Below, piece by piece: positions 35,148-55,713 of a DNA stretch of 64,000 nt; within the stretch, counting starts at the first letter, position 1; each line of letters starts with the position of its first letter. Where the stretch lies: the NCBI GenBank assembly GCA_017525855.1, contig JAFXSE010000004.1, positions 1 through 64,000 of the forward strand, read 5' to 3'. The notes under the pieces are model-generated. The model ran no database searches and was not told the DNA's origin. It saw only the letters and a program-made list of their open reading frames with translations. The stretch is from Bacilli bacterium (GTDB taxonomy: Bacteria > Bacillota > Bacilli > RF39 > UBA660). Both the position numbers and the translations under genes were made by a program.

Positions 35148-37640
35148 ATGAGTATATTTACAAGATTATTCGATCATGAATATAAACAATTAAAAAAATT
35201 TCAAAAGCTTGCTGATGAAATAGAAGCTTTAGATGAAGAAACACAAAAATTAACTGATACTGAATTAAGAGCTAAAACAGAAGAGTTTAAAAAAAGACTT
35301 AGTGAGGGAGAAACTTTAGATGACATATTAGTAGAAGCATTTGCAGTAGCTAGAGAAGCTTGCTTTCGTGTCATTGGAGAAAAGCCTTTTTATGTACAGT
35401 TATTAGGGGCTTGTGCAATACATTTTGGTAATATTGCAGAGATGAAAACAGGTGAAGGTAAAACATTAACTGGAGTTTTACCAGCATATTTAAATGCCCT
35501 AACAGGTAATGGTGTGCATATTATTACCGTTAATGAGTACTTAGCGCAACGTGATACGGACTGGATGGGTGGAATTCATAGATTCTTAGGATTAACAGTA
35601 GGTGTTAACTTAAGAGATATGTCTCCTGCTGAGAAGAAAGAACAATATAACTGTGATATTATGTATTCTACCAATAGTGAATTAGGATTTGACTATTTGA
35701 GAGATAACATGGTAGTAAGAAAAGAAGATAGAGTTCAAAGACCATTAAACTTCGCTATTATTGATGAGGTCGATTCAGTACTTATAGATGAGGCACGTAC
35801 TCCACTTATTATTTCAGGCGGAAAAATGAGTAGCGCTAATCTATATATAGATGCAGATAGATTTGTAAAAAGCTTAAAACAAGAAGATGATTACATCTAT
35901 GATGAAAAAACAAAAAATGTTAGCCTAAGTGATAAAGGCTCAGAAAAAGCAGAAAAAGTTTTTCATGTTAAGAATCTTTATGATGTTGATAATGCAACTT
36001 TAGTTCATTATATTAATCAAGCATTAAGAGCTAATTATGCAATGAGCAAAGATGTAGATTATGTAGTTCAAGATGATGAAATAATTATTGTTGATCAATT
36101 TACAGGACGTTTGATGAAGGGAAGAGCTTATAGTGAAGGACTTCATCAAGCAATAGAGGCTAAAGAAAATGTAACAATTAATCAAGAAACAAAAACTTTA
36201 GCAACAATAACAATTCAAAATTATTTCAGAATGTATCAAAAACTTTCTGGTATGACAGGAACTGCCAAAACGGAAGAAGAAGAGTTTAGAGACATTTATA
36301 ACATGTACGTAATTACTATACCAACTAATAAGCAAGTTATACGTATTGATGCACCAGATTTAGTTTATGCTACAAAAGCAGCAAAATACAAAGCAATTGT
36401 TAAATTCGTAAAAGAAAGATATGATGCAGGACAACCAGTATTAATAGGTACAATTGCCATTGAAACAAGTGAATTAATAAGTGATTTATTAAAGAAAGCA
36501 CATGTACCACATGAAATATTAAACGCAAAGAATCATGCACGTGAAGCTGAAATAATTTCTAAAATAGGTCTCCATAAATCAGTAACAATTGCAACAAATA
36601 TGGCAGGACGTGGTACAGATATCAAATTATCTGATGAAATAAGAGCACTTGGAGGTCTATGCGTTGTAGGTACTGAAAGACATGAATCACGTCGTATTGA
36701 CAATCAGTTAAGAGGACGTTCTGGTCGTCAAGGAGATCCAGGATATACACAATTCTTTGTATCAATGGAAGATGATTTAATGATTCGCTTTGGATCTGAT
36801 AGAATCAAAAACATGATGCAATCTATGGGATTTGGTGATAATGCTATTCAAAGTAAAATTATTACTAGTTCATTAGGAACTGCTCAAGCACGTGTAGAAG
36901 GTAACAATTTTGATATCCGTAAAAATATCTTACAGTATGATGATGTAATGAATAGTCAAAGAGAGATAATATATGAAAAGAGAAATAAGATTTTAGATAG
37001 CGAATCTATTCATGAAGATATATTAAATGTTTTCCGCCATCATGTAGAGGATTTAATTAATTCTCATTTAGTAATAGATGGAGAAATAAATGAAGATGAT
37101 TTAGAAGAAATTGTTGAATTTGCCAATGAAAACTTACTAGTAAAAGATATTAAAAAATCATCTATAAAAAATTTATCAAGTGAAGAGATAATAGATAAAA
37201 TTTATAAACAATTGGAAACAGAGTATTCTGAAAAAATATCAATATTACCAGAAGAAATCACTAATGAATTTGAAAAAGCAATTACTCTTCAAGTAATAGA
37301 CAACTATTGGATGGAACATATTAATACAATGTCACATTTGAGAGAAGGGATTTATTTAAGAGGATATGCCCAAGAAGACCCGCTTCATGCATATACTATG
37401 GAAGGCTTTGATATGTTTGATAGAATGCTACAAAATATTGATAAAGACACTACAGTATTCTTACTTAAAGCAGAAATCAGACAAAATATAGAAAGAAAAG
37501 CTCAAACAAAAAAAATGAGTACAAATAAAGATGATTCAGAAGGAGCAAAAAGGAAACCTAAGAAATCCGAAAAAGTAGGAAGAAATGATCCATGCCCATG
37601 TGGTAGCGGGAAAAAATACAAACAATGTCATGGAAAGTAA
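35148..37640 (+). CDS. secA: Preprotein translocase ATPase SecA
   Basis: 830 aa motor of Sec secretion. Walker A EMKTGEGKTLTGVLPAY (about residues 98-114), DEVDSVLIDEARTPLI (Walker B, DEAD-like), TNMAGRGTDIKL and GRSGRQGDPG helicase motifs, long helical scaffold, then a basic linker and the SEC-C zinc motif (CPCGSGKKYKQCH) at the C-terminus, which contacts SecB/lipid/ribosome. The final codons after CCATGTGG (37596-37603) appear to be the attachment site for the cassette array downstream. Confidence 0.98.
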   Translation: MSIFTRLFDHEYKQLKKFQKLADEIEALDEETQKLTDTELRAKTEEFKKRLSEGETLDDILVEAFAVAREACFRVIGEKPFYVQLLGACAIHFGNIAEMKTGEGKTLTGVLPAYLNALTGNGVHIITVNEYLAQRDTDWMGGIHRFLGLTVGVNLRDMSPAEKKEQYNCDIMYSTNSELGFDYLRDNMVVRKEDRVQRPLNFAIIDEVDSVLIDEARTPLIISGGKMSSANLYIDADRFVKSLKQEDDYIYDEKTKNVSLSDKGSEKAEKVFHVKNLYDVDNATLVHYINQALRANYAMSKDVDYVVQDDEIIIVDQFTGRLMKGRAYSEGLHQAIEAKENVTINQETKTLATITIQNYFRMYQKLSGMTGTAKTEEEEFRDIYNMYVITIPTNKQVIRIDAPDLVYATKAAKYKAIVKFVKERYDAGQPVLIGTIAIETSELISDLLKKAHVPHEILNAKNHAREAEIISKIGLHKSVTIATNMAGRGTDIKLSDEIRALGGLCVVGTERHESRRIDNQLRGRSGRQGDPGYTQFFVSMEDDLMIRFGSDRIKNMMQSMGFGDNAIQSKIITSSLGTAQARVEGNNFDIRKNILQYDDVMNSQREIIYEKRNKILDSESIHEDILNVFRHHVEDLINSHLVIDGEINEDDLEEIVEFANENLLVKDIKKSSIKNLSSEEIIDKIYKQLETEYSEKISILPEEITNEFEKAITLQVIDNYWMEHINTMSHLREGIYLRGYAQEDPLHAYTMEGFDMFDRMLQNIDKDTTVFLLKAEIRQNIERKAQTKKMSTNKDDSEGAKRKPKKSEKVGRNDPCPCGSGKKYKQCHGK
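37596..37603 (+). other. Proposed attachment core in the secA SEC-C codons
   Basis: CCATGTGG is identical at 37596, 40047, 42186 and 43113 (and ACATGTGG at 44179). In the two relics with matched flanks, bases before it are cassette-type and nearly identical, and bases after it diverge. That fits the overlap of a site-specific recombinase. Confidence 0.55.
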
Positions 37641-37641
37641 T

Positions 37642-37668
37642 AAAAGCCCAGTAATTACGGGCTTTTTT
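37642..37668 (+). terminator. Terminator after secA
   Basis: AAAAGCCC (37642-37649), 9-base loop, GGGCTTTTTT (37659-37668). Confidence 0.9.
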
Positions 37669-37694
37669 CATGCTCCGAATACTTTGGAATATAC

Positions 37695-37749
37695 TTTAGA
37701 TACCTTTTTGGATACCTTCCGGTGAGTATCTAAAAGGTATCTAGATACC
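37695..37749. repeat. Cluster of GATACC repeats downstream of secA
   Basis: Direct TTTAGATACC and GGATACC, an inverted copy (GAGTATCTAAA), and the 14-bp palindrome GGTATCTAGATACC within 55 bases. Resembles recombinase arm-binding sites. The remaining bases to 37919 show only AT-rich DNA. Confidence 0.6.
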
Positions 37750-37919
37750 CTTTTAAATATTAAATTCGCAATTTTTTAGCAAGATTTTAAAATGCAATGT
37801 TTCCTTTATTTATAAGGGATTGTAAGCATTTTTGCTTTTATATAATATAAAATTGTGTCCATTGTCAAAGTGACATAGGGTATGTTTTTTTAATTATCTT
37901 ACAATTAATAGCATATCTA

Positions 37920-37958
37920 TTGACAATAACAAAAGAATATCATACAATGTTATTGTAT
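37920..37958 (+). promoter_or_regulatory. GntR-ABC operon promoter with an overlapping operator
   Basis: TTGACA (37920-37925), 17-base spacer, TACAAT (37943-37948). A perfect inverted repeat ATACAAT-GTT-ATTGTAT (37942-37958) covers the -10 element, a likely site for autorepression by the adjacent GntR/YtrA protein. Confidence 0.7.
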
Positions 37959-37986
37959 TAATCAAGTGATACAGTGAGGTGAAAAC

Positions 37987-38346
37987 ATGGAATTTACTTT
38001 TGATAACAATATTCCAATATATATTCAACTTTTAGAATATATGAAAATATATCTTATTTCAGGAGTTTTTAAATGTGGTGAAAAACTACCATCAGTAAGA
38101 GAGTTTGCAAGTACATTTAAGGTTAATCCCAATACAATGCAAAAGGCATTAGCAGAACTTGAAAGTATGAATCTCATATACACTGAAAGAACTAATGGTA
38201 AATATGTTACAAAAGACGAAAAGTTAATAGAAAAATTAAAAGATGAATATGCTATTACTCTTGCAAAAAGTTATTTTCAGGGTATGAAAAGAATTGGCTT
38301 GGGCAAAGCAGATTCTATAAAATATTTAGAAAGGATAGATGAGTAA
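37987..38346 (+). CDS. GntR-family regulator, YtrA subfamily
   Basis: 119 aa. Winged helix-turn-helix of GntR type (NIPIYIQLLEYMKIYLISG, KLPSVREFASTFKVNPNTMQKALAELE), followed by only a short helical tail, which is the YtrA form that controls neighbouring ABC exporters. Overlaps or abuts the ATPase gene, and an operator-like palindrome lies on its promoter. Cargo of cassette 1. Confidence 0.9.
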   Translation: MEFTFDNNIPIYIQLLEYMKIYLISGVFKCGEKLPSVREFASTFKVNPNTMQKALAELESMNLIYTERTNGKYVTKDEKLIEKLKDEYAITLAKSYFQGMKRIGLGKADSIKYLERIDE

Positions 38347-38347
38347 T

Positions 38348-39043
38348 ATGAAGTTATTAGAGATTAAATGCTTAAATAAATCTTTTAACACAAAAGAAAT
38401 ATTAAAAGATGTTAATTTAAGTATTTCTAGTGGAAAGATAGTAGGATTATTAGGAAAGAATGGTGCAGGAAAAACTACATTAATAAAACTTATAAATGAT
38501 TTACTAACACCTACGAGTGGAGAAATATTAATTAAGGGCAAAAAGATAGGTGTTGAAACAAAAAAAGTGATATCTTATTTACCCGAAAGAACATATTTAA
38601 ATAAGCAAATGAAAGTGTCTGAGGTAATTGAATATTTTAAAGATTTTTATAAAGATTTTGATGCTGAAAAGGCCAAGAAGTTATTAAAAGATTTAGATTT
38701 AGATATTGAAGAACATCTCTCTAAAATGAGTAAAGGTATGCAAGAAAAAGTACAGTTAGTACTTGTTATGTCAAGAAAGGCTGACCTATATATTTTAGAT
38801 GAACCGTTGGGTGGAGTTGATCCGGCAACAAGAGATTATATATTAGATACGATATTATCTAATTTTAATGAAAATGCTAGTGTGATTATTTCAACACATT
38901 TAATATCTGATATAGAAAGAATTTTAGATGAAGTAATATTTATTGATAAAGGGAAAATTATATTGCAAAGTGATGCGGATAAACTTAGGAATAAAGAAAA
39001 AGCATCAATTGATGAAATCTTTAGGAGGATGTTTAAATGTTAA
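38348..39043 (+). CDS. ABC transporter ATP-binding protein
   Basis: About 231 aa. Walker A LLGKNGAGKTTLIKL, Q-loop region SYLPERTYL, an altered ABC signature MSKGMQEKVQL (LSGGQ is usual), Walker B DLYILDEPLGGVDP and H-loop IISTHLI. This resembles the YtrB/EcsA-like exporters paired with YtrA regulators. An in-frame ATG at 38339 also exists, but it leaves only three bases after AAGGA. Overlaps the permease gene by seven bases. Confidence 0.9.
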   Translation: MKLLEIKCLNKSFNTKEILKDVNLSISSGKIVGLLGKNGAGKTTLIKLINDLLTPTSGEILIKGKKIGVETKKVISYLPERTYLNKQMKVSEVIEYFKDFYKDFDAEKAKKLLKDLDLDIEEHLSKMSKGMQEKVQLVLVMSRKADLYILDEPLGGVDPATRDYILDTILSNFNENASVIISTHLISDIERILDEVIFIDKGKIILQSDADKLRNKEKASIDEIFRRMFKC

Positions 39044-39831
39044 ATAAATTATTAAAATATGATTTAAAATATATGATTAAGAATATGGCAATATTTTATA
39101 TACTATCTATATTCTTTGCTATAACAACTAGAATATTATTTAATATGGAACAGTCAGTAATCATAAATATAATTGGACAAATAAGTGTTGGATGTATGTT
39201 TGCAATGATAATAAATACTTTAATAAATACTATAATGAGAAGTTGGGTTAGATTTAGAGATTCATTATATAAAGATGAATCATATCTAACACATACATTA
39301 CCTGTTACTAAAAATGATTTATATAATTCAAAGTTTATACAAACATTAATATTTTTCTTTATAAGTTTTATAGTTATTTTAATAAGTTTATTTATCGCAT
39401 ACTATTCAAAAGAAAATTGGTTAGCGATAACTAATTATGTAAAAACTATTACGACTGGCTTAAATATGAGTACTTCATTCTTTATTACAATGGCTATTAT
39501 AATTATTTTTTTAGAAGTATTTAATGCTATTCAATGTGGTTTTCTTGGAATAATTTTAGGCAACAAGATGAATAATGGGAAAATAGGGTATTCAGTACTA
39601 TTTGGATTTATTACTTATTTGGTAGCTCAAAGTTTAATATTAGGCTTAGTATTTGTATATGGATTATTTGATTCTTCTATCATGGAATTATTTAAAACAG
39701 CAACAATTAATATTGATGTAGAAGCATTTAAGGTTTTGGCAATATTATCGTCTTTATTATATATAATGATTATATTTATTATGAGTATATTATGTAAAAA
39801 AGAATTAAATAAAGGAGTTAATGTTGAATAA
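39037..39831 (+). CDS. ABC-2-type permease
   Basis: 264 aa with six membrane helices and no ATP-binding motif. Forms the membrane half of the exporter encoded by the preceding gene. The SWVRFRDSLYKDESYLTHTLPV block between the second and third helices is typical of permeases in YtrA-regulated operons of Firmicutes. Substrate unknown; relatives respond to cell-wall antibiotics, which is family knowledge and not proof here. Confidence 0.8.
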   Translation: MLNKLLKYDLKYMIKNMAIFYILSIFFAITTRILFNMEQSVIINIIGQISVGCMFAMIINTLINTIMRSWVRFRDSLYKDESYLTHTLPVTKNDLYNSKFIQTLIFFFISFIVILISLFIAYYSKENWLAITNYVKTITTGLNMSTSFFITMAIIIIFLEVFNAIQCGFLGIILGNKMNNGKIGYSVLFGFITYLVAQSLILGLVFVYGLFDSSIMELFKTATINIDVEAFKVLAILSSLLYIMIIFIMSILCKKELNKGVNVE

Positions 39832-40037
39832 AAGGCATAGAAATCTTTCGATATTATGTTATAAATTATAAGAAAATAGAGCTTGCTAAAAAATTGTGAA
39901 AAAGCGTCAAAAAAGTATTTTAGATACCTTTTTAGATACTCTGAGAGTAAATTCTCGGGTGCTGTCGGAAGCTACCAAGTGCATTCAATAGCCGAAAAGA
40001 GCCACAAAATGCTCCCAAAAGCTGCCAAAAACCCCAA

Positions 40038-40091
40038 TACAAAAAGCCATGTGGAAGTGGACGCAAGTATAAAGTTTGTTGCGGTAAATAA
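40038..40091 (+). pseudogene. Displaced secA 3' end, relic 1
   Basis: In-frame codons read KKPCGSGRKYKVCCGK-stop from about 40041 to 40091: a complete SEC-C motif with no gene body in front. Arg, Val and Cys differ from SecA here, as in other species' SEC-C tails. Confidence 0.7.
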
Positions 40092-40098
40092 TGCTAAA

Positions 40099-40133
40099 AA
40101 CCCTTGTAAAATAAGGCTTTACGAGGGTTTTTA
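40099..40133 (+). terminator. Terminator behind relic 1
   Basis: AACCCTTGTAAA (40099-40110) pairs with TTTACGAGGGTT (40118-40129), one mismatch, then T-run. The loop contains ATAAGG, shared with relics 3 and 4 (GATAAAATAAGG). Confidence 0.75.
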
Positions 40134-40239
40134 TAATTCAACATTTTGAGTAATTTTTATCAAAAAAAGGCGTTTAGATACGTTTTAGATACGTTTTTTT
40201 GTAAATTCGAAACTTATTTAATCGCAATATAGTAATATT
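40125..40239 (+). repeat. Cassette left-end repeat, copy 1
   Basis: 115 bases matching 42264-42378 with a single difference. Contains TTTAGATACG twice (40173-40182, 40184-40193) about 125-145 bases after the core. Confidence 0.9.
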
Positions 40240-40296
40240 CTGAGCAAAATAATTTTTAAAATTTATGGTATAATGAATATAATAGAGGTGTAAAAC

Positions 40297-41385
40297 ATGA
40301 ATAAAAAACTAAAATTATTTCTTAAAATTTTATTGGGAATTATTATTGTTTTATTATTATCTATTATTGTTATATTTGTAGTTCATAAAATAAAAAGTAA
40401 TAATGAGTATAATGAATTAAAAGATTTAGGATATATTAATAAATATTCAGCAGGAGATTATGATTTAAATATTTATAGAATTGGTAATAAAAATAGTAAA
40501 CATAAATTAATTGGTATTTCTGGATTAGGTGTTCATAATTATAGTATTGAAATGACTTTTGTAAATGAACAATTAAAAGATGATTATGAAATAATTTATA
40601 TTGATAGAGCTGGTTATGGATATAGTGATGATACTTCTAAAACACAAACAGTAGAACAAATAGTGTCTGATTATAGAACTGCTCTTAAAAGTGTTGGAAT
40701 AGAAGGACCATATATTCTTATGCCACATTCAATTGGTGGAGTGTATGCAACATATTGGGAAAGTACATATCCTGATGAAATAGAAGGAGTTATATTTATA
40801 GATGGGACTCCACTTGGAATGAATATTTATGAGAACGAAGATTATAGTGTAAGTTTTTCTGATTATTTTGATGTGTTATTATGTAAATTAGGAATGCAAA
40901 GATTTAGTATTCGTGATGTTAGTGATTCTCTTCCTAGTGAGTATACTAAAGAACAACAAAAACTAACTGATTATTTAAATATAAAATCAAGTATGAATAA
41001 AGCTCCACTTTCTGAAATAAAAGAAAAGAACAATAATGTTAATAAAGCTTATCAAAGTATTAAGAGTAATGATATACAAAAAATATATATCGAGTCATCG
41101 CGTGGTGCTAGAACTATTGAAGAAGTAAAAGAAGATTTAAAATGGGTAAAGAAAAGAAAGCAAGAATTAGGATTAAAAACAATTACAACTATGCCATCAG
41201 ATGATAAGATAACACAATTGATAGAACAAAATATAGAAATTGAGAAAAAACAAATTATTCCTTATATTGATTTATTAGGTAACACTGAAATTAAATTATT
41301 ATCAGGAGATCATTATATTTTTGAACAAAAGCCTGATGAATTAACAAGAATAATAAAAGAATATATTAATGATTTAGATAAATAG
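40297..41385 (+). CDS. Membrane-anchored alpha/beta-hydrolase
   Basis: 362 aa. N-terminal membrane helix (residues 5-29), then an alpha/beta-hydrolase fold: oxyanion-type GISGLGVHNYS, DRAGYGYSD, and the nucleophile elbow MPHSIGGVYA, where Pro stands before His-Ser instead of the usual Gly. FIDGTPLG follows, and a late His lies in GDHYIFEQKP. Looks catalytically complete, with the triad Asp not certain. Substrate unknown; orientation suggests an extracytoplasmic domain. Own extended -10 promoter (TGGTATAAT) at the cassette left end. Confidence 0.8.
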   Translation: MNKKLKLFLKILLGIIIVLLLSIIVIFVVHKIKSNNEYNELKDLGYINKYSAGDYDLNIYRIGNKNSKHKLIGISGLGVHNYSIEMTFVNEQLKDDYEIIYIDRAGYGYSDDTSKTQTVEQIVSDYRTALKSVGIEGPYILMPHSIGGVYATYWESTYPDEIEGVIFIDGTPLGMNIYENEDYSVSFSDYFDVLLCKLGMQRFSIRDVSDSLPSEYTKEQQKLTDYLNIKSSMNKAPLSEIKEKNNNVNKAYQSIKSNDIQKIYIESSRGARTIEEVKEDLKWVKKRKQELGLKTITTMPSDDKITQLIEQNIEIEKKQIIPYIDLLGNTEIKLLSGDHYIFEQKPDELTRIIKEYINDLDK

Positions 41386-41407
41386 CTCGGAAGATTAAGA
41401 TTTATCG

Positions 41408-41432
41408 AACGGATGAGAATCCGTTTTTTTAT
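41408..41432 (+). terminator. Terminator after the alpha/beta-hydrolase gene
   Basis: AACGGAT (41408-41414) pairs with ATCCGTT (41419-41425), then T-run. Confidence 0.85.
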
Positions 41433-41524
41433 GGTAAAATAGTTATGTAGTAATTAACTCTCAGGTTCTGTCCTGTTATATAATTAATAATAATCATATA
41501 ATTATTTGTGAAAGGAAGGATAAT

Positions 41525-41995
41525 ATGGATCAAATTAAAATAGGAAAATTTATTTTAAATTGTAGAAAAGAAAAAGGTTTAACTCAAGAAAAATTAGCAG
41601 AAAAATTAGGTGTTACAAGTAAATCGATTAGTAGATGGGAAAATGGAAATACTATGCCAGATTATTCTTTACTAAAAGATCTATGTAATGAGTTAGATAT
41701 TAATGTTAATGAGTTATTATCCGGTGAAAAAATTAAGGGGAATGATTATATGAATAAATCAGAAGAAAATTTAATTAAATTAAGAAAACAAATTGATAAA
41801 AGAAAAAAGGTATTAACGATTATTTCTTATGCGTTTATGGGAATCATTATTGTTGCGTTTATTTTGAACATGGTACTAAATCGTATATTTCCTGATGATA
41901 GACATTGGAATATTATTAGATATACATTTTTATATAGTGGTATTGCTCTATTTATAGTTTCAATTGTTCTTGAATTATTTAAATTTGATAAATAA
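41525..41995 (+). CDS. XRE-family regulator with C-terminal membrane helices
   Basis: 156 aa. Helix-turn-helix at residues 1-65 (IGKFILNCRKEKGLTQEKLAEKL, SKSISRWENGNTMPD, DINVNELLSGE), then two hydrophobic helices (about 97-118 and 133-150). One of four similar proteins in this window. A promoter -10 TATAAT (41479-41484) and AAAGGAAGG precede it. Function likely local transcription control sensed at the membrane; inference. Confidence 0.85.
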   Translation: MDQIKIGKFILNCRKEKGLTQEKLAEKLGVTSKSISRWENGNTMPDYSLLKDLCNELDINVNELLSGEKIKGNDYMNKSEENLIKLRKQIDKRKKVLTIISYAFMGIIIVAFILNMVLNRIFPDDRHWNIIRYTFLYSGIALFIVSIVLELFKFDK

Positions 41996-42000
41996 AAGGC

Positions 42001-42230
42001 TCGGAAGATTAAGATATTACGATACATTAAATTAATAAGTTTAGATACGTTTTTAGATACGCTTAAACTGCAATGTTAGAAAAATAGACATAACTTTATT
42101 ACAATTTATGAGTAAACTATTAAACTTTTTGAGTAAGAAAGCCAACTTTAAAAGGAAAAAATTACACGGTAGGTTTAAATGGTCGCCATGTGGCAGTGGT
42201 AAAAAATATAAACAATGTCATGGTAAATAA
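42001..42230 (+). repeat. Cassette right end plus SEC-C tail, copy 1
   Basis: 230 bases aligned without gaps to 42928-43157. Eight differences in the first 185 bases, none in the CCATGTGG core, then 11 differences in the last 37, all synonymous. TTTAGATACG repeats at 42040-42049 and 42052-42061. Confidence 0.9.
42186..42230 (+). pseudogene. Displaced secA 3' end, relic 2
   Basis: Codons read PCGSGKKYKQCHGK-stop, identical in protein to the SecA terminus but with different codons. Upstream in-frame residues (FKWS) are not SecA-like, so no gene body is attached. Confidence 0.75.
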
Positions 42231-42236
42231 TGACTT

Positions 42237-42274
42237 AAACCCTTGTAGAATACGGTTTTACAAGGGTTTTTATA
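42237..42274 (+). terminator. Terminator behind relic 2
   Basis: AAACCCTTGTA (42237-42247) pairs with TACAAGGGTTT (42258-42268), then T-run. Confidence 0.8.
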
Positions 42275-42378
42275 ATTCAACATTTTGAGTAATTTTTATC
42301 AAAAAAAGGCGTTTAGATACGTTTTAGATACGTTTTTTTGTAAATTTGAAACTTATTTAATCGCAATATAGTAATATT
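42264..42378 (+). repeat. Cassette left-end repeat, copy 2
   Basis: 115 bases matching 40125-40239 with one difference, including both TTTAGATACG copies. Confidence 0.9.
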
Positions 42379-42436
42379 GTGATGTAATTAAATAACAAAA
42401 ATATATGGTATAATTGTTATTAGAGGAGTTGATAGT

Positions 42437-42925
42437 ATGGCAAAATGGATAAAAATTTTTAGTAATCAATATTTAGGTTTTTGGTTATTAGGGTTAGTTT
42501 TATTTGCAATTCAGGAAATACCGTATATGGTAATGCCGTTATTTAAATTAAAAACTAATCCTATTATGAATATGACTGAGACATCTCCATGTTTAGATAT
42601 TTTAGAAAAATTATTAGGATCCTTATGTATAGCATTAATGGTATTAATTGTAAATAAAGATCCATCGTTTTTTGAAATAGGAACTGGAATTCAAAAAATA
42701 GCATTTATTTCTATGATAATGGTTTTATTACTAAACTTTATTGGTTGGGGATTATATTTTAAAGGATATCAATCAATTGGTATTATGATGTTCTTTATAG
42801 TTTTCTTACCACCACTATATTACATATTGATAGGAGTTTGGAGACAAAATTGGATATTAGTATATACTGGAATAGCATTTTTATTTGTCCATACCATTCA
42901 TGTATATAAAAATCTTACATTATAA
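42437..42925 (+). CDS. Small polytopic membrane protein of unknown function
   Basis: 162 aa with about five membrane helices and short loops; the first loop carries FKLKTNPIMNMTETSPCLDILEK. I recognise no family. Promoter TGGTATAAT about 25 bases upstream and AGAGGAG ribosome site. Sole cargo of cassette 3, so whatever benefit that unit carries rests on this protein. Confidence 0.75.
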   Translation: MAKWIKIFSNQYLGFWLLGLVLFAIQEIPYMVMPLFKLKTNPIMNMTETSPCLDILEKLLGSLCIALMVLIVNKDPSFFEIGTGIQKIAFISMIMVLLLNFIGWGLYFKGYQSIGIMMFFIVFLPPLYYILIGVWRQNWILVYTGIAFLFVHTIHVYKNLTL

Positions 42926-42927
42926 GT

Positions 42928-43157
42928 TCGGAAGATTAAGATACTACGATACATTAAATTAATAAGTTTAGATACGTTTTTAGATACGCTTAAACTGCAA
43001 TGTTAGAAAAATGGACATAGCTTTATTACAATTTATGAGTAAACTATTCAACTTTTTGAGTAATAAAGCCCACTTTAAAAGGAAAAAATTACACGGTAGT
43101 TTTAAATGGGCGCCATGTGGCTCAGGAAAGAAATATAAGCAGTGCCACGGAAAGTAA
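42928..43157 (+). repeat. Cassette right end plus SEC-C tail, copy 2
   Basis: Second copy of the 230-base unit at 42001-42230. TTTAGATACG repeats at 42967-42976 and 42979-42988. Confidence 0.9.
43113..43157 (+). pseudogene. Displaced secA 3' end, relic 3
   Basis: PCGSGKKYKQCHGK-stop, the same protein as relic 2 but with TCA for AGT serine and G/C-ending codons (AAG, CAG, TGC, CAC), as if drawn from a different secA. Confidence 0.75.
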
Positions 43158-44186
43158 GATAAAATAAGGGGAAAATCAATATTTTACAAATGACAAATTT
43201 GTTGTTTGTCAACAAATCAAATAAAGTGTGGACAAAATCCATTGAAAATAAAGGGTGTTAACAAAAATAAATTTGTTTGCGATAATTGTTAATTATTTTA
43301 ATAAATGGTATAATTAATAAAGGAGTTGAGGTAAATGTCTGAGTACAAAAAAATGAGAGAATACACACACGAAGAATTTGTAAATTTAATTAAAAATTTA
43401 AGCGAAGAAGAATTACTAAAATTAAGTGCAATGTATGGTGGATATCCTGTATTGTTTAGAATGGCGCTAGATGAAAGAATTAGTCATATACCATTTATTC
43501 AAACTGGTGCTGCAATTATTATAAGAAATGAAAATGGCGAGATACTATTACAAGAAAGAACTGACAGGAATAAATGGGGATTACCTGGTGGTTGTCAAGA
43601 ATTAGGTGAAGATTTAAGGGTAACTGCTATAAGGGAAGCCTATGAAGAAACAGGAATAAAACTTGATTATAATGATCTTGAATTAATTGATACTTTATCT
43701 GGAGAAACTAGAAAGAATAGTTATCCAAATGGTGATATTGTATATAACAATACATCATTATATTTAGCAGATGTTTTAATGCAAAATATTAGTGATATGA
43801 AAGGCGATTCTGAAACTAAACGATTACAGTTTTTCAAACCAGAAGAAGTTCCTGAAAATCTAATGGATGAAGATTTAATTAAATCATATTTAACATATTC
43901 AAATAAACATAAAACTCGCTAATTATAATTAAAGATTTCCCTGACCTATGTACAGACTCAAAAATTGCAGTATTGTAAGTAACATAAGGGAATGATATAA
44001 TTAGGGTGGTAAATGAAATGTTGACAGAGTCATCCTTTTGTCATCCGATAATAGATTACAGTTGTATAGATTAGTACTATAAATACTATTTGTACTAATT
44101 CTGTTATGATCAACGAAATCAATAAATACCATAAATAATATAAATATAATAAATAGCGTAAATATATTACCTGCCTGTACATGTGG
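43121..44186 (+). mobile_element. secA-tail cassette 4 (Nudix cargo), divergent ends
   Basis: About 1.07 kb between relic cores 3 and 4. It lacks TTTAGATAC repeats. Its left end has GACAAATTTGTTGTTTGTC-type inverted sequence (about 43191-43209) and its right end TTAGTAC...GTACTAA (44071-44098). Probably a related element with another arm-site type. Confidence 0.4.
43335..43922 (+). CDS. Nudix hydrolase
   Basis: 195 aa. N-terminal helical extension of about 55 residues, then a Nudix fold (AAIIIRNENGEILLQERTD, KWGLPGG) with a complete Nudix box at about residues 93-115 (GCQELGED ... REAYEETGI). The glutamates that bind Mg are present. It hydrolyses a nucleoside-diphosphate-linked substrate not predictable here. 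The NGDIVYNNTSLYLADVL block is seen in MutT-like proteins of Firmicutes. Own TGGTATAAT promoter; sole cargo of cassette 4. Confidence 0.9.
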   Translation: MSEYKKMREYTHEEFVNLIKNLSEEELLKLSAMYGGYPVLFRMALDERISHIPFIQTGAAIIIRNENGEILLQERTDRNKWGLPGGCQELGEDLRVTAIREAYEETGIKLDYNDLELIDTLSGETRKNSYPNGDIVYNNTSLYLADVLMQNISDMKGDSETKRLQFFKPEEVPENLMDEDLIKSYLTYSNKHKTR

Positions 44187-44223
44187 AAGTGGCAAGAAAT
44201 ATAAACAATGTTGTGGTAAATAA
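44170..44223 (+). pseudogene. Displaced secA 3' end, relic 4
   Basis: PACTCGSGKKYKQCCGK-stop in frame. Core reads ACATGTGG. The outermost copy, so possibly the oldest displaced terminus. Confidence 0.65.
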
Positions 44224-44266
44224 CTCGCAAGCTCCGATAAAATAAGGAAAAACGCGAGTTTTTCTT
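44222..44266 (+). terminator. Terminator behind relic 4
   Basis: AACTCGC (44222-44228) pairs with GCGAGTT (44254-44260), loop contains GATAAAATAAGG, then T-run. Confidence 0.75.
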
Positions 44267-44595
44267 TTTATCAAAAAATAGCTCCAACAGGGTGTGAAAA
44301 CCATTTCTCATACTAAGTATAATTGCTTATATCATATTTTTTTATAACTAAATTTAGAAGAAAAGCAATATTATAGAAGGAACATTAGGGTAATTTAGGT
44401 GCTAGCTCATATTGCGGCAGATTAGACTGACGAAAGTATTTTAACTGAACGAATAGAAGATAAAACTTTTTATTTTCTATGTTAAAATAAAGGTGAAATC
44501 AAATTTCTTGTTTTCCAATCTTATTAACCCTAGAATCATTTCCTGTTAAATTAATTGCAATAGTTATAAGATTTTAGTATGAAGGGAGAAAAAAT

Positions 44596-45744
44596 ATGAA
44601 TCAAGAAAAAATTGGAAAATTTATTGCTAAGTGTCGTAAAGATAAAAAAATGACACAATCTGATTTAGCTGAAAAATTAGGAGTTACTGATAAGTCAATT
44701 GGTAATTGGGAAAATGGCAGAAATATGCCTGATTTATCCTTGTTTAAACCATTATGTGAAGAATTGGATATTACTATCAATGAGTTGTTAAGTGGTGAAA
44801 AATTAAAGAAAGAAGAATACCAAGAGAAACTTGAAGAAAATATTATTAATACTATTGATTATTCTACTAAAAAGATTAATATAATTAGAAATAATTTGGG
44901 AATTGTATTATTGATTTTAGGGATTCTTATTTCATTTACTGCAATGACTATGTTTGCATCAGAAAGTTCATGGGGAAGTATATACTCCGTTTTAGGAGCA
45001 GTAATATCTTTAATAGGTGTTAGTAAATTAACAAAGAATTATAAGTATTCAAAAAGAATATTAATTTGTACTGCATATTTTATTTTCTTTTTGATATCAT
45101 TATTTGCTATTGATTATATAAGTGTTATTTCATTAAAACAACTGCCTAGATTTTGTACTGTAAAAACCAGTAATGAATATGTCTATGAATGTGACAATCC
45201 ACTATATACAGTGTATAGAGTAAATAGTAATACACCAAATGAATATATTATTGTAGATACTAATAAAAAATATACAATTGATACTATCCCAGTTGTACCA
45301 TTTAATAGAAATAAATCAGGAATTGATAATATTATTAAATACAAAAATAAATATATTGGTAATAATAGTAATGATGGGAATTTAATAGGATCATTACCAT
45401 TGTCTGAATATGGTTATGTATTTGAAATAGATTCAGATAATTTAGGACTAACAATTGATTATCATATAACAGATTGGTATATTAATGAAAATTATTATTT
45501 AGAAAAAAGTATAGTTTATAATTCTGTTTCTATATTTTCATTAATAGATAATGTGAAATATATCAAATATAACTTTAGTGGCAAAACATATGAGGTTAAA
45601 AGAGAAAATGTTGAAAATAATTTTCCAAACTATAAAGATATTGTTAAAGAAAAAGTTAATAAAGATGCATTTAATAAATATCTTGAACAAAAAATATCAA
45701 ATGTTGAGTTTATAGACTTGTGCTTTAATAAATTTATATCTTAA
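44596..45744 (+). CDS. XRE-family regulator with membrane segments and extracytoplasmic domain
   Basis: 382 aa. Helix-turn-helix at residues 1-65 (IGKFIAKCRKDKKMTQSDLAEKL, SIGNWENGRNMPD, INELLSGEKLK), then hydrophobic helices (about 98-116, 127-143, 154-175), then about 200 residues predicted outside the membrane, Asn/Tyr-rich with two Cys (FCTVKTSNEYVYECD) that could form a disulfide. A one-protein membrane sensor-regulator is plausible. Paralogue of the genes at 41525, 51219 and 60375. Confidence 0.8.
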   Translation: MNQEKIGKFIAKCRKDKKMTQSDLAEKLGVTDKSIGNWENGRNMPDLSLFKPLCEELDITINELLSGEKLKKEEYQEKLEENIINTIDYSTKKINIIRNNLGIVLLILGILISFTAMTMFASESSWGSIYSVLGAVISLIGVSKLTKNYKYSKRILICTAYFIFFLISLFAIDYISVISLKQLPRFCTVKTSNEYVYECDNPLYTVYRVNSNTPNEYIIVDTNKKYTIDTIPVVPFNRNKSGIDNIIKYKNKYIGNNSNDGNLIGSLPLSEYGYVFEIDSDNLGLTIDYHITDWYINENYYLEKSIVYNSVSIFSLIDNVKYIKYNFSGKTYEVKRENVENNFPNYKDIVKEKVNKDAFNKYLEQKISNVEFIDLCFNKFIS

Positions 45745-45832
45745 AATATCATGCGATTAAAACCTTGTAATTTATTAAATAAGTTTCTTAAATTTAATTA
45801 ATTAAACAATATTTTTTTACCAATAAAAATGA

Positions 45833-45838
45833 TATAAT
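45833..45838 (+). promoter_or_regulatory. -10 element of the acyl-transfer gene cluster
   Basis: TATAAT preceded by TGA, about 31 bases before the Lnt-like gene. Confidence 0.5.
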
Positions 45839-45868
45839 TATTGATATATTAATTTAGTGGAGAAATTT

Positions 45869-47335
45869 ATGATAAAAAAAGAAAATGTTAAATGGATATT
45901 TTTAATAATAGGGTGCATTGCCTATATATTTTTAAATGGTCAATTAAATATTGGAATTTCAGCATGGGTTTGGACTTTTTCTATTCTATATTTTTATAGA
46001 AGAAGTGAGAAAAGATGGATGAGGATATTAACATTTGTTCTTATGATAATCATTACTGCCATAAAATGGTATGGCATGGTAGACGGAGCATTTTTGATAA
46101 AGTTTATATGTGGAATACTGTTAGGAGCATGTTTCTTTATACCTTATTTTATAGATTATCATTTTTATAAAAAAGTTAATGGTTTTAAGGCTACTCTTCT
46201 TTTCCCTTTTTCTTTTGCAGTCATAGAATTCTTTATGTCTACTATGCCGATGGGTGAATTAGAAAGCTTAGCAGCAACACAAACTGATTATACTTCATTA
46301 ATCCAATTAGCTGCATTTGTTGGAACATATGGAATATCAGTAATTGTTGCTTGGCTAGCTTCCACTGTTCTTTATATTGTTGACTATGTAAAAGAAAATA
46401 AAAAAATGCCATATAAGGCATCAACAATATATTTAACTACTTTAATAATAGTTCTTTTTATTGGAGGATTAAGAGTTGCAACTCCCCTTAGCAATGTTAA
46501 GAATACTAAAATTGCAGTATCCACTGGTATTAAAAACGGAACAGCCTTATCAGCTTATAAAGATTTTTTAGTAGAGGAACACATCGAATCAATGAAAAAA
46601 TCAATTATAACAGCAGCTACATCTAAAGCTGATATGATAGTCTTTAATGAAGAAGCTTTTACAGTAGTAAATACTGATTTAGATTTATTATTAAAAGGAG
46701 CCAAGAAATATGCACAAGAAAATAATATATTTATTATTTTACCAGTTGAAATTGAATATGAAAAAGGAAACCAACTATCTGAGAATTGTTTATATATAAT
46801 TGATAATAATGGCAAAGAATTGTATAAGTATATTAAAACAAAACTAGTACCTTTTTTTGAAAATCAAGAATATGCAGTAGGTGATGGTAATGTTCCAAAT
46901 ATAAATGTAACATTACCAAGTGGGAATAAAATTAAACTTGCAACTGTAATTTGTATGGATTCTAATTTTACTTGGTTTATTAGAAGTAAAGTTCATAATG
47001 ACACGGAATTATTAATTGTACCATCTTGGGATTGGAAACCTATTGATAAGTTTCATAACAATTGGACAATATTTAGAAGTATAGAAAATGGTTTAACAGT
47101 AGTAAGATCAACTTATGATGGATATTCTGCTGCTTTTGACCCATATGGACAAGTATATGGTTTGAGTCACACTGATTACTCAGGTTTTGAAAATGTTATT
47201 ATTTATGAAACCCCAGTAAAAAGTCGTTTTACAATTTACAAATATATTGGACCAGTCATTGATTGGATGTATCCTACTGTTTTACTTTTACTATTATTAT
47301 CTTCAAAATTTAAAAAAAAGAAGGAAAAGAAATAG
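45869..47335 (+). CDS. Apolipoprotein N-acyltransferase-like protein (CN-hydrolase domain)
   Basis: 488 aa. The N-terminal half has about six to seven membrane helices. The C-terminal half is a carbon-nitrogen hydrolase (nitrilase) domain with the expected Glu-Lys-Cys triad: FNEEAF (about 260), YIKTKLVPFFE (about 322), VICMDSNF (about 361). A final helix and basic tail close the protein. This is the Lnt layout, unusual for a Firmicute, where canonical Lnt is normally missing. GGAG supports the ATG at 45869 over an upstream GTG. First gene of an apparent acyl-activation and transfer cluster. Confidence 0.8.
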   Translation: MIKKENVKWIFLIIGCIAYIFLNGQLNIGISAWVWTFSILYFYRRSEKRWMRILTFVLMIIITAIKWYGMVDGAFLIKFICGILLGACFFIPYFIDYHFYKKVNGFKATLLFPFSFAVIEFFMSTMPMGELESLAATQTDYTSLIQLAAFVGTYGISVIVAWLASTVLYIVDYVKENKKMPYKASTIYLTTLIIVLFIGGLRVATPLSNVKNTKIAVSTGIKNGTALSAYKDFLVEEHIESMKKSIITAATSKADMIVFNEEAFTVVNTDLDLLLKGAKKYAQENNIFIILPVEIEYEKGNQLSENCLYIIDNNGKELYKYIKTKLVPFFENQEYAVGDGNVPNINVTLPSGNKIKLATVICMDSNFTWFIRSKVHNDTELLIVPSWDWKPIDKFHNNWTIFRSIENGLTVVRSTYDGYSAAFDPYGQVYGLSHTDYSGFENVIIYETPVKSRFTIYKYIGPVIDWMYPTVLLLLLLSSKFKKKKEKK

Positions 47336-47493
47336 TAGTTATATAACTACTGTTTTATATTGCATAACTCAATCAGGCGCATATTGACACTTATCAAAAA
47401 GAGAGATAAAATAAGCTTAGCTAATTGTGGTAAATTTGTGGATTTTTTTTTACAATTTTATCAATTCTTATCTGTGAGAGGAAAAGGATAATT

Positions 47494-48648
47494 ATGAGAA
47501 AAAATGATGTGGCTAAAGAACCACTAATAAGATTTGGAGAATTTGAATTACTAAAGGCAATTGCTATTATTGGATTACCAGCAATCCACCTTATGGAAGA
47601 AGCAATGGAAGGTGGATTTGCAAGTCCTGAATTAATGAGATTTGGTTCATTAATTATAGGGTTATGTGTATTTGGTCCTTCTGTTTTTATGATATGCATG
47701 GGATTTGGTATTGGTGGTGGAAAAACAACTGCTGCTGGAATTAGAAGAAATGGTATTCAGTTCCTTTTAATTGGTGCTATTCTGAATATTTTTAGATGGT
47801 TTATACCAGGGATTATTCAATCGTTTACCTTACATACGAGACTTATTGAAGATATAGAATTTTGCTTGCAATCAGATATTTATTATTTTGTAGGCTTGTT
47901 CTTTATATTATATTCATTCCTTAAGAAAAAAGATATTTCTGCAGAGGGTATGTTATTTATAAGTATTTTGATGATTACAGCTAATATGCTTTTAACCCCA
48001 TTAACCGGTAAATACATTACAAACCCAATTATTGCATCACTTGTTGGTAATATTGTATATGTTAATGAGACAAGCTGTTTCCCATTACTATCATGGGCAA
48101 TATTCCCAAGTGTTGGAATTCTTTTAGGGGATTTATTAAAGAAATCTGATGAGACTAAAAGAGAATTTATAATGAAACGTATATTTGACTTTTCTTTTGT
48201 CTTATTTGCATCCTTCATGGTATTTCTATATCAATATGATATTGATATTATGAAAGTACTTGTATCCCCAAACAATGATTATATTACCGATATTCCAAAT
48301 GTAATTCTTCTTGTAAGTTGCGCTTTATTCTTAATAAGTCTTACATATTATTTATGTAAAAGAATTGGTAATTCTTCTTTTATGAAATTTATGTTAAGAG
48401 TATCAGTATTTATAATTCCTTTCTATTTATTACAATGGGTTATAATTGCTTGGATATTCTATATTCTACCAATTCTTCGTATGCCTCCAGGATGTTTTGG
48501 AGTAGGATGGTACTTGTTCTCTGTTATTGTTGTTACAGCAATTTGTATTTTTGTATCAACCAGATATGGAATGAAAATTATGAAAATACTGTTTAAAATT
48601 ACAACAATTAAGAAAAAGAGAAAAAAGAAATTAAGAGTATCAGAATAA
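47494..48648 (+). CDS. Polytopic membrane protein, acyltransferase-like (DUF1624/TraX-like)
   Basis: 384 aa with about ten helices. Opens FELLKAIAIIGLPAIHLMEE, a pattern (charged residue, helix, His) seen at the start of heparan-N-acetyltransferase-like, OpgC/acyltransferase-3 and TraX families, where the His is catalytic. FMICMGFGIGGGK and RRNGIQFLLIGAIL agree with that superfamily. Very basic C-terminus. I infer a membrane acyl transfer role from fold-like pattern and from the adjacent ligase and carrier protein; exact family uncertain. Confidence 0.55.
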   Translation: MRKNDVAKEPLIRFGEFELLKAIAIIGLPAIHLMEEAMEGGFASPELMRFGSLIIGLCVFGPSVFMICMGFGIGGGKTTAAGIRRNGIQFLLIGAILNIFRWFIPGIIQSFTLHTRLIEDIEFCLQSDIYYFVGLFFILYSFLKKKDISAEGMLFISILMITANMLLTPLTGKYITNPIIASLVGNIVYVNETSCFPLLSWAIFPSVGILLGDLLKKSDETKREFIMKRIFDFSFVLFASFMVFLYQYDIDIMKVLVSPNNDYITDIPNVILLVSCALFLISLTYYLCKRIGNSSFMKFMLRVSVFIIPFYLLQWVIIAWIFYILPILRMPPGCFGVGWYLFSVIVVTAICIFVSTRYGMKIMKILFKITTIKKKRKKKLRVSE

Positions 48649-48669
48649 TTATAAAAAGGAGAGAAATAT

Positions 48670-50262: not shown

Positions 50263-50282
50263 TAGATAGAGGAGGATTTAAT

Positions 50283-50510
50283 ATGTTTGAAAGAACAGTA
50301 AAAATTATTGAAGAATATGTAGATGAGGATTGTGAAATAACTATGGAAAGTGCACTTGTAGATGACTTAGGTCTAAGCTCACTTGAAGTTATCAATATAG
50401 TTGCTGCATTTGAAGATGAATTTGATATTGAAGTGCCTGACAAGGTTATTCCTACACTACGTACAATTGGTGATATTGTAAAATACTTAGAAAAAAATGT
50501 AGAAGAATAG
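50283..50510 (+). CDS. Dedicated acyl carrier protein
   Basis: 75 aa, acidic four-helix carrier. Phosphopantetheine site DDLGLSSLEV with Ser33. Differs from housekeeping AcpP (DSLD) by SSLE, so it is a specialised carrier. A GGAGG precedes the ATG. Between the ligase and the Sfp-type transferase that would activate it. A terminator follows. Confidence 0.9.
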   Translation: MFERTVKIIEEYVDEDCEITMESALVDDLGLSSLEVINIVAAFEDEFDIEVPDKVIPTLRTIGDIVKYLEKNVEE

Positions 50511-50529
50511 AAATATAATTTTTAAGAAT

Positions 50530-50558
50530 ATATGTGGATGAGATTCACATATTTTTCT
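50530..50558 (+). terminator. Terminator after the acyl carrier protein gene
   Basis: ATATGTG (50530-50536), 9-base loop, CACATAT (50546-50552), T-run. Confidence 0.8.
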
Positions 50559-50603
50559 TTAAAAGAAAGAGAGGTATAGGAGAATAAAACTCTACTAATT
50601 AAT

Positions 50604-51140
50604 ATGATAGAAAATAATGTGATATATTACTCGATTGTTCATAAGAAAAAAATAAAAATTAATGAAACAAGTAATAAATTAGAGACAAATCAATCACGAT
50701 ATCTTTTAAAAAAAATGTTAGAATACTTTGATTTGGATATGCCAGAAATATCTTTATCAAAAAATGGGAAACCTTTTTTTAAAAATTCAAAAATCTTCTT
50801 TAATTATTCTCATTCTAAAAACTATGTATCATGTGCTATTTCATTATCAGAAGTTGGAATTGATATTGAAGAAATTAATAGTAATATAAGTGATAAAGTT
50901 GCAAAAAAATACTTAGATGATGAAAAGAATCCTTCAAAAAGATTAGAAATGTGGGTAAAAAAAGAGTCTTATAGTAAGTTAAAGGGATTGGGATTTCAAA
51001 TTGATTTTAAAAATATAGATTTAAATAACATAAAAGAAAAAAACTGTTTTATAAAAAGTAATGATTATATATGCTCAATTTTTTCTAATAACAAAGATTG
51101 TATTTTTAAAGAATTAAATATTAATGATAAATTATGGTAA
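50604..51140 (+). CDS. Sfp-type 4'-phosphopantetheinyl transferase
   Basis: 178 aa (typical Sfp about 220, so compact). FNYSHSKNYVSCAIS (substrate-binding His), VGIDIEEI (Mg-binding Asp/Glu) and WVKKESYSKLKG (the WxxKEA motif) are all present. It would convert the adjacent apo-carrier to holo form. No good Shine-Dalgarno lies near the ATG, so low expression or an alternative start is possible. Separated from the ACP gene by a terminator. Confidence 0.88.
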   Translation: MIENNVIYYSIVHKKKIKINETSNKLETNQSRYLLKKMLEYFDLDMPEISLSKNGKPFFKNSKIFFNYSHSKNYVSCAISLSEVGIDIEEINSNISDKVAKKYLDDEKNPSKRLEMWVKKESYSKLKGLGFQIDFKNIDLNNIKEKNCFIKSNDYICSIFSNNKDCIFKELNINDKLW

Positions 51141-51218
51141 AATAACAACTCAACCATTGGTATGTGTAAATTTTTAATGGCTTATTTTATAATTAAGTCA
51201 TGAAAGGAGAAAAAGCTC

Positions 51219-52386: not shown

Positions 52387-52387
52387 A

Positions 52388-54623: not shown

Positions 54624-55713
54624 ATGGAAAAAAATGAAATTAAAAGAGAATTAAATAAATTAAATGAAAAAGTACTAGATTTATGGAGGTCACTTTGACA
54701 TAGAAGAAAAGTCTCTTGAAATAACAAGATTAACTAAGGAAACTAACATACCTAACTTTTGGGATGACCCTAAAAAAGCTGAGGCTATTTTAAAAGAAAT
54801 AAATAGTTTAAAAAGTATAGTCGAACCAGTACAAAAACTTAAAAATAATATTGAAACATCAAAAGAATTGATTGAAATAATTGAAAGTGAAGAGGAATTA
54901 GAAGAAATAGAACAAGAACTTTTAAATGGTCAAAAAAAGCTAGATGAATTAAGTTTACTTCTATTATTAAATGAACCTTATGATAAAAATGATTGTATTT
55001 TAGAAATACATAGTGGTGCAGGTGGAACAGAAGCGTGTGATTGGGCCAATATGTTGTTAAGAATGTATACAAGGTATGCAGAAAAACACGGATATAAAAT
55101 AAACGTACTTGATATACAAGATGGAGAAGAAGCCGGAATAAAGAGTTGTTCACTAGAAATAAAAGGTGAAAATGCCTATGGATACCTAAAAAATGAAAAA
55201 GGGGTACATCGTCTAGTTAGATTATCTCCTTTTGACTCTAATAACAGAAGACACACTTCATTTGCATCAGTTGAAGTTACCCCTAAAATAGATAATAGTA
55301 TTAATGTAGAAATAAATGAAAAAGATTTAAAAATAGATGTATATCGTTCTAGCGGAAAAGGTGGACAAGGAGTAAATACAACAGACTCAGCTGTAAGAAT
55401 TACTCACTTACCTACCAAAATAGTAGTTACTTGTCAAAATGAAAGAAGTCAAATACAAAATAAAGAAACTGCAATGAATGTATTAAAAAGTAAATTAATA
55501 GTTTTAGAAGAAGAAAAAAGAAAAAGTGAATTAAATAATATAAAAGGAGAAACTTCAAATATAGAATTTGGTTCACAAATACGAAGTTATGTTCTTCACC
55601 CATATTCAATGATAAAAGATCATAGAACAAATACTGAAACTAGTAATGTTAATAAAGTGTTAGATGGAGATATTGATATATTTATAGAAGATAATTTAAA
55701 AAGGGGAAAATAA
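54624..55713 (+). CDS. prfB: Peptide chain release factor 2, with programmed +1 frameshift
   Basis: The ATG at 54624 opens 24 codons ending CTT-TGA (TGA 54696-54698). A GGAGG (54685-54689) lies three bases before the CTT. Slipping one base (CTT-T-GAC) enters the long frame, giving 362 aa. This is the classic RF2 autoregulatory frameshift: RF2 shortage stalls at UGA and favours shifting. The body has SPF (LSPFDSNNRR), the UGA anticodon-mimic, and GGQ in [14 protein letters not shown]. The frame starting at 54868 is only the tail. Confidence 0.96.

What the first reader, a model, noticed from the sequence alone, without database searches (positions are those of the whole stretch)
37596..44223. 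Stacked array of small secA-tail cassettes, possibly an undescribed integron-like site-specific system
Five SEC-C ends (secA plus four orphan copies ending 40091, 42230, 43157 and 44223) punctuate four cargo modules of 2.45, 2.14, 0.93 and 1.07 kb. The common CCATGTGG (ACATGTGG in the last) is the only stretch conserved at base level across the copies. In cassettes 2 and 3, shared left (115 bases, one mismatch) and right (185 bases, eight mismatches) ends surround different cargo. An element entering at a gene 3' end normally carries a substitute end and displaces the old one. Repeated insertion at secA would leave exactly this stack, newest next to secA. No integrase is present, so mobilisation in trans is implied.
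Basis: partly seen in the sequence, partly recalled or inferred. Interest (0 to 1): 0.95.

Follow-up and report, generated by a model that had tools for sequence, protein, structure and literature searches.

The report
Phage-moved gene cassettes stacked behind secA
Behind the secA gene of this uncultured bacterium sit four small gene cassettes, each ending in a spare copy of secA's last codons; cassettes of the same build, some of them letter-for-letter alike, lie at the same place in distantly related bacteria, so they are likely shuttled there by recombinases borrowed from viruses and other mobile elements, much as integrons trade genes.

Summary
Four orphan SEC-C tails follow secA and bound four modules. 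The same anatomy occurs in 20 of 65 secA loci picked by SecA similarity, with up to 7 cassettes in a row elsewhere, and in one Clostridia MAG. Of 78 complete cassettes (median 1.9 kb; 71 have 1-3 ORFs; 152 of 155 ORFs co-oriented with secA) only 5 hold an integrase. Three integrase-less cassettes are 99.8-100% identical between hosts whose secA is only 68-76% identical, each shared exactly from core to core. Crossovers map to about ATGTGG within the SEC-C codons, so each insertion would rewrite secA's last 12-13 codons. Each cassette carries paired arm words that match at its two ends (34 of 40 readable) but differ between cassettes. Prophages with such ends and a phage-type integrase sit at the same site, five arm words beside five integrase lineages; a second, Tn916-like integrase family uses the same core. 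Best reading: non-autonomous cassettes moved in trans by phage and Tn916-like integrases. Tandem islands and CIMEs are known; this single-gene, arm-coded, cross-genus form at secA was not found in print. No movement was observed directly.

The parts
35148..37640 (+). secA; its 3' end (SEC-C codons, core CCATGTGG at 37596) is the attachment site
   Evidence: Pfam SecA domains and SEC-C
37641..40091 (+). Cassette 1: left end with terminator-like hairpin and GATACC arm words (37699), GntR regulator, ABC ATPase, membrane protein, right arm GATACC (39923), orphan SEC-C tail
37987..38346 (+). GntR-family regulator (cargo 1)
   Evidence: PF00392 E 3.1e-12
38339..39043 (+). ABC transporter ATPase (cargo 1)
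   Evidence: PF00005 E 3.2e-29
39037..39831 (+). 264-aa protein, no Pfam match, by position probably the ABC permease (cargo 1)
   Evidence: role inferred
40047..40091 (+). Orphan SEC-C tail 1; by the crossover map its 3' part belongs with cassette 2
40092..42230 (+). Cassette 2: left arm GATACG (40177), alpha/beta hydrolase 40297-41385, HTH protein 41525-41995, right arm GATACG (42044), orphan tail 2
42186..42230 (+). Orphan SEC-C tail 2
42231..43157 (+). Cassette 3: left arm GATACG (42316), 162-aa protein 42437-42925 without Pfam match, right arm GATACG (42971), orphan tail 3
43113..43157 (+). Orphan SEC-C tail 3
43158..44223 (+). Cassette 4: left end like integrase-bearing R2 elements L122/L149 (81% and 79% over 121 bp), NUDIX protein 43335-43922, right end like L190 cassette 2 (75% over 158 bp), orphan tail 4
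44029..44046 (+). Right arm words of cassette 4 (TCATCC, twice)
   Evidence: read; same motif aligned
44179..44223 (+). Orphan SEC-C tail 4 (core ACATGTGG)
44596..45744 (+). HTH-DUF4825 gene after the last recognisable tail; possible cargo of an older cassette
   Evidence: 78% DNA match over 578 bp in L198/L209 (G071), beyond two orphan tails there
54868..55713 (+). prfB-like gene, the ancestral downstream neighbour of secA, marking the far side of the hotspot
   Evidence: PCRF and RF-1 domains; secA-prfB spacing table

Best explanation
The four modules are site-specific mobile gene cassettes that lie stacked at the 3' end of secA and that likely move without an integrase of their own, using tyrosine recombinases supplied in trans by temperate phages (cassettes 1-3) and by small Tn916-like elements (cassette 4). 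SHOWN by sequence: each cassette runs from core to core (about ATGTGG in CCATGTGG); the bases 3' of the core travel with the following cassette's left end; integrase-less cassettes are shared whole, with exact core boundaries, by distant hosts; arm words match at the two ends of a cassette; prophages and integrase-bearing elements with related ends sit at the same site. INFERRED: a cassette excises as a circle whose junction holds the core; a cognate integrase, chosen by the arm words, recombines it with the SEC-C codons of secA; the incoming cassette gives secA a new functional tail and usually a new terminator, and the old tail stays as the orphan at the far end, so the newest cassette lies next to secA. 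Transfer between cells could be by co-excision with a neighbouring prophage or by transduction of circles (untested).
For: Same anatomy in 20 of 65 SecA-picked loci with at least 1.5 kb downstream (78 fetched; 11 too short, 2 without a recognised tail dropped; one of the 20, G049, had already shown an orphan hit). 78 complete cassettes in 43 loci, 36 of them from loci picked by an arm word; 5 with an integrase motif. Cassettes 99.84, 100 and 99.96% identical over 1231, 917 and 2258 bp in hosts whose secA 3' part is 72.4, 68.2 and 75.7% identical, diverging at the core on the sides that differ. Filled/unfilled pair L010/L009. Arm co-variation: alignment score own pair 13.86 vs permuted 10.78, sd 0.29, max 12.11 in 20,000; control 330 bp inward 8.55 vs 8.71 (74 cassettes); arm class concordant in 34 of 40, permuted mean 13.3, max 24 in 100,000. 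Arm pattern: 53 hits in 29 of 386 genomes, reversed-pattern control 0; 49 of 53 in a stretch that also holds a SEC-C tail. IMG/VR contig 3300028833_003330: secA tail, arm, integrase, phage-like genes, arm, orphan tail. Five arm words beside related integrases 49-92% identical to L293's. Second integrase family in R2 cassettes.
Against: No circle, excision or transfer was observed. No cognate phage-type integrase (49% identity or more to L293's) was found in any of the 29 arm-bearing genomes (only up to 5 candidates per genome were scored), so the helper is inferred from other records. The L010/L009 pair is not perfectly clean: the displaced tail in L010 differs from L009's secA tail at 10 of 45 bases. 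6 of 40 cassettes have discordant arm classes and 34 of 74 were not readable at both ends; arm classes were named after seeing the data. Cassette 4 has left and right ends of different subtypes. 4 of 53 arm hits lie away from any tail. All genomes are draft, largely MAGs, and the window has no held genome.
Confidence: 0.83

Rival explanations
1. The modules are immobile remnants (decayed CIMEs) of formerly autonomous phages and IMEs that integrated at secA and lost their integrases; the stack is an accretion record, not an active cassette system.
For: Decay of tandem islands into CIMEs is the standard account for such stacks (PMC5704250, passages; PMC3146451, passages). Some R2 integrase copies are damaged (L149 in-frame stop, L009). 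Some tails are degenerate (L170, L183 third).
Against: Three integrase-less cassettes moved whole between hosts with 68-76% secA identity with almost no changes, boundaries exactly at the core. Independent decay would not leave one-to-three co-oriented genes per cassette (71 of 78; 152 of 155 ORFs) with matching ends around different cargo.
Confidence: 0.1
2. A sedentary integron-like platform: one chromosomal integrase of each host shuffles the cassettes.
For: Array of small single-gene cassettes at one site, newest probably proximal, cargo classes (GNAT 9, NUDIX 4 of 110 proteins) reminiscent (from memory) of chromosomal integrons.
Against: No integrase in most arrays; in ten array-bearing genomes the tyrosine recombinases listed (28 with loci checked) had no SEC-C tail on their loci apart from none recognised; the 96-nt core region is not more folded than shuffles on average (mean z -0.32, although 11 of 78 have z below -2); arm words differ between cassettes of one array, arguing for several recombinases.
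Confidence: 0.04
3. Metagenome assembly artefact: conserved 45-base tails let assemblers join unrelated fragments behind secA.
For: 12 of 37 secA loci lie within 310 bp of a contig end on their 3' side (coordinates), so the site is hard to assemble.
Against: Arm words match across whole cassettes; one case lies on an 894-kb contig (G328, L254); the tail is much shorter than the shared 0.9-2.3 kb cassettes; the same boundaries recur in records of three collections.
Confidence: 0.03

Closest known systems
Tandem ssrA genomic islands of Dehalococcoides (PMC3146451, passages seen)
   Same: Repeated site-specific insertion at one gene 3' end leaves many direct repeats (28 reported); 15 islands lack an integration module and were suggested to be CIMEs.
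   Different: There the integration module is a larger gene cluster next to Ccr-type recombinases and the site is the tmRNA gene; here the site is a protein-coding end whose codons are replaced, the units are mostly 1-2.5 kb, the recombinases are phage-type and Tn916-like, and arm words tag each cassette.
CIMEs and tandem accretion in streptococci (definition from PMC5704250, passages seen)
   Same: Units with attL and attR but no integration or transfer genes, stacked beside related elements at a gene end.
   Different: Mostly single-gene, in arrays of up to seven, exchanged between genera one unit at a time, with two unrelated helper integrase types on one core.
Integron gene cassettes (from memory)
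   Same: Small gene cassettes in co-oriented arrays at one site, mobile without own recombinase.
   Different: No IntI or attI/attC; core is coding sequence; arm-type sites; 65 of 78 first ORFs have a TATAAT-like word upstream (no control run), so cargo probably has its own promoter.
Phage satellites such as PICIs (from memory)
   Same: Depend on a helper phage's functions and share its biology at the attachment site.
   Different: No own integrase, no regulatory, replication or packaging genes recognised in the single-gene cassettes.

Membership tests
CIME (cis-mobilizable element) | Retains attL and attR | tested here: met
   Core plus arm words at both ends; exact core boundaries
CIME (cis-mobilizable element) | Lacks integration and transfer genes | tested here: met
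   Window cassettes 1-4 carry none by Pfam; 73 of 78 cassettes have no integrase motif
CIME (cis-mobilizable element) | Mobilised in cis by accretion with an integrative element | not testable with these tools
   secA-cassette-prophage order exists in L292, but single-cassette sharing suggests units also move alone
Integron | IntI integrase next to attI | tested here: not met
   No integrase in the window ORFs scanned; recombinases at this site elsewhere are phage-type or Tn916-like; the IntI-specific patch itself was not searched
Integron | attC sites folding as single strands | tested here: inconclusive
   Mean z -0.32 over 78 cores, but 11 of 78 below -2
ICE/IME | Own integrase | tested here: not met
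   Absent from window cassettes; met for R2 elements such as L162 and L256
Temperate prophage at secA (helper) | Integrase, arm words, phage genes between secA tail and orphan tail | tested here: met
   IMG/VR 3300028833_003330, tail at contig 2624 and orphan at 39859; phage gene names read from sequence, not searched
Phage satellite (PICI-like) | Own integrase and helper-interference genes | tested here: not met
   No integrase in window cassettes; interference genes not searched

The most novel reading that the evidence does not exclude
An integron without an integron: a community-wide pool of single-gene cassettes in gut Firmicutes-like bacteria that carries no recombinase and rides on passing phage and Tn916-like integrases, with short arm words acting as an address that decides which helper moves which cassette, while every insertion hands the essential secA gene a fresh functional tail so that the cell never pays for the gamble. 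Two unrelated integrase lineages have converged on the same six bases.
Probability: 0.5. Interest if true: 0.95.

Novelty: new variant of a known kind. Interest (0 to 1): 0.87.

Why it matters
It would show that gene-cassette trading of the integron kind can be run entirely by borrowed phage integrases, with arm sites as a tag, in bacteria abundant in animal guts where integrons are not known to me. It gives a direct test of how non-autonomous elements choose a helper, explains why assemblies of these genomes break behind secA, and offers a natural set of arm-word and integrase pairs for recombinase engineering.

Tried and rejected
Integron membership (no attC-like fold on average). Orphan tails as 3' ends of local genes (short open frames). 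Segmental duplication of secA (cassettes have their own ends and cargo). A recombinase in trans inside the same genomes: PF00589 matches in ten array-bearing genomes; none of the 30 loci L259-L288 held a SEC-C tail (30 of 38 listed matches had loci). Plasmid origin: 19 plasmid records matched only small pieces of the array. Known phages: 1874 of 50,697 records match the L293 integrase, all below 60% identity, best listed about 29%. Defence cargo as the main theme: PADLOC matches are scattered and mostly generic families. Order-level arm search: 20 of 385 genomes, mostly the same ones as before, control 0. Print: searches found no paper on secA or SEC-C as such a site in the held library (listings only); one found nothing on frameshifted tyrosine integrases in its listing; two gave listings only. 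Papers: passages of PMC3146451 and PMC5704250 were seen; nothing else was opened.
Full report
WHAT IS THERE. The window holds secA (35148-37640) followed by four orphan SEC-C tails at 40047, 42186, 43113 and 44179 that bound modules of 2451, 2139, 927 and 1066 bp. The cargo is a GntR/ABC/membrane set, an alpha/beta hydrolase with an HTH protein, a 162-aa protein without Pfam match, and a NUDIX protein. The ancestral neighbour prfB lies at 54868, 17.2 kb away; 45 of 47 outgroup loci have secA and the prfB match 262-763 bp apart with no orphan. Four relatives have 349-1000 bp and no orphan (G104, G036, G092, G154).

HOW COMMON. The window's genome is not held. From the GTDB family of its SecA relatives I fetched 78 secA regions in rough order of SecA similarity; 65 have a recognised secA tail and at least 1.5 kb downstream, and 20 of these have one or more orphan tails, 6 two or more. 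One of the 20 (G049) had already shown an orphan hit. Further loci were picked by an arm word. The longest runs are 7 (G066, L239), 6 (G163, L240), and 5 (G049, L190). A Clostridiales MAG (L071) has two cassettes between secA and prfB; its second cargo pair resembles one in L253 by eye.

CASSETTES. Between two tails lie 78 complete units in 43 loci: median 1910 bp, quartiles 1272 and 2530, range 878-9698; 36 units have one ORF of 100 aa or more, 21 two, 14 three, 7 more; 152 of 155 such ORFs run with secA. Five units have an integrase motif. After the left tail a terminator-like hairpin with T-run stands in 53 of 78, against 1.2 expected from internal windows; a TATAAT-like word lies upstream of the first ORF in 65 of 78, without a control. 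Cargo (110 proteins): GNAT 9, HTH_3 7, NUDIX 4, radical SAM 3, class II tRNA synthetase core 3 among 154 families, 25 listed.

MOBILITY. Three integrase-less cassettes are 99.84% (1231 bp, L133/L180), 100% (917 bp, L183/L187) and 99.96% (2258 bp, L229/L230) identical, in hosts whose secA 3' parts are 72.4, 68.2 and 75.7% identical. Their outer sequences differ right at the core. In L229 the cassette follows secA, in L230 another cassette. Window cassette 1 shares its cargo with L173 (83% over 2202 bp; secA 70.9%), and its left end with L229 (90% over 230 bp), whose cargo is different; cassettes 2 and 3 share both ends with a cassette of G247 (91-92%) around different cargo. L010 has a 1.5-kb cassette that L009 lacks, with flanks 85% and 96.5% identical; the displaced tail however differs from L009's at 10 of 45 bases, so tails have also turned over there.

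SITE. In L229/L230 the left side is host-like through core position 5 and the right side element-like through 7; in L133/L180 the element begins by position 3 and the host resumes by 5 (position 0 is the first C of CCATGTGG). A staggered exchange over about ATGTGG explains both. The tail 3' of the core is the same in L229's secA and L230's orphan, so it travels with the cassette: insertion rewrites secA's end.

ARMS AND HELPERS. Right ends fall into two superfamilies. R1 ends carry GATAC-like word pairs; none of the R1 cassettes in that comparison has an integrase. R2 ends carry GTCC-, TCATCC-, TTCCTC-like pairs; five of those cassettes have one. Within a cassette the left and right words match far beyond chance, though related cassettes are not independent and the classes were chosen by me. 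Viral contigs gave the likely R1 helper: in IMG/VR 3300028833_003330 a secA tail at 2624, GATACC arm, a 376-aa integrase on the opposite strand, phage-like genes, GATACC arm and an orphan tail at 39859. Related integrases stand beside GATACC (L293, L294, L300, L334), GATAAG (L335, L292), GATACG (L295), GAGCCA (L137, L339) and GATCCA (L336) words, and keep the invariant catalytic-type residues (residue roles from memory). For L137 and L339 no tail stands next to the integrase, and L336 begins at a contig end, so their link to secA is less direct. In L292 a cassette lies between secA and the prophage; in L294 the same phage type follows an orphan while in L300 it follows secA. In 386 genomes the three best full-length matches (62, 55, 52%) lie just behind secA. 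The R2 integrases have Arm-DNA-bind_4, Phage_int_SAM_3 and Phage_integrase domains, hence my label Tn916-like; L256 holds an intact one.

LIMITS. No circle or transfer was seen. None of the 29 arm-bearing genomes showed an integrase 49% or more identical to L293's (up to 5 candidates scored per genome). The genomes are drafts; 12 of 37 secA loci end within 310 bp on the 3' side, as expected of a variable, repeat-bounded site.

COMPARISON. Stacked islands with direct repeats and integrase-less members are known at Dehalococcoides ssrA and in streptococci as CIMEs (passages). What I did not find in the held library is such a system at secA, at single-gene scale, with arm-coded dependence on two integrase families.

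Noticed in passing
L122, L140, L162, L010, L230 (integrase genes of R2 elements); window has none: The Tn916-like integrase is split into an arm- and core-binding part and a catalytic part, out of frame by -1 at a run of eight A; five of seven copies have A8, the two with A7 (L009, L149) are otherwise damaged. Likely a programmed frameshift or slippage.
   Followed up: partly
L071:10700-14900: A Clostridiales MAG outside the family has the same secA cassettes before prfB.
   Followed up: partly
window 44224-54867: Ten kb of further genes between the last tail and prfB, including an HTH-DUF4825 gene found beyond orphan tails in G071; probably older cassettes with lost tails.
   Followed up: no
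L293, L334, L335, L295, L137, L336 integrase N-termini: The residue pattern around columns 36-46 of alignment A2 (A/C..F/Y..S/Q/N/V) differs between arm-word classes and is alike in the two GATACC lineages; a possible specificity determinant.
   Followed up: no
cargo of 110 proteins (alignment A1): tRNA synthetase domains occur repeatedly as cassette cargo (class II core 3, class I lysine type 2).
   Followed up: no
L190, L196, L183 arrays: Some cassettes carry left and right ends of different arm classes (for example L146 second, L196 second), suggesting hybrid cassettes made by loss of an internal tail.
   Followed up: no
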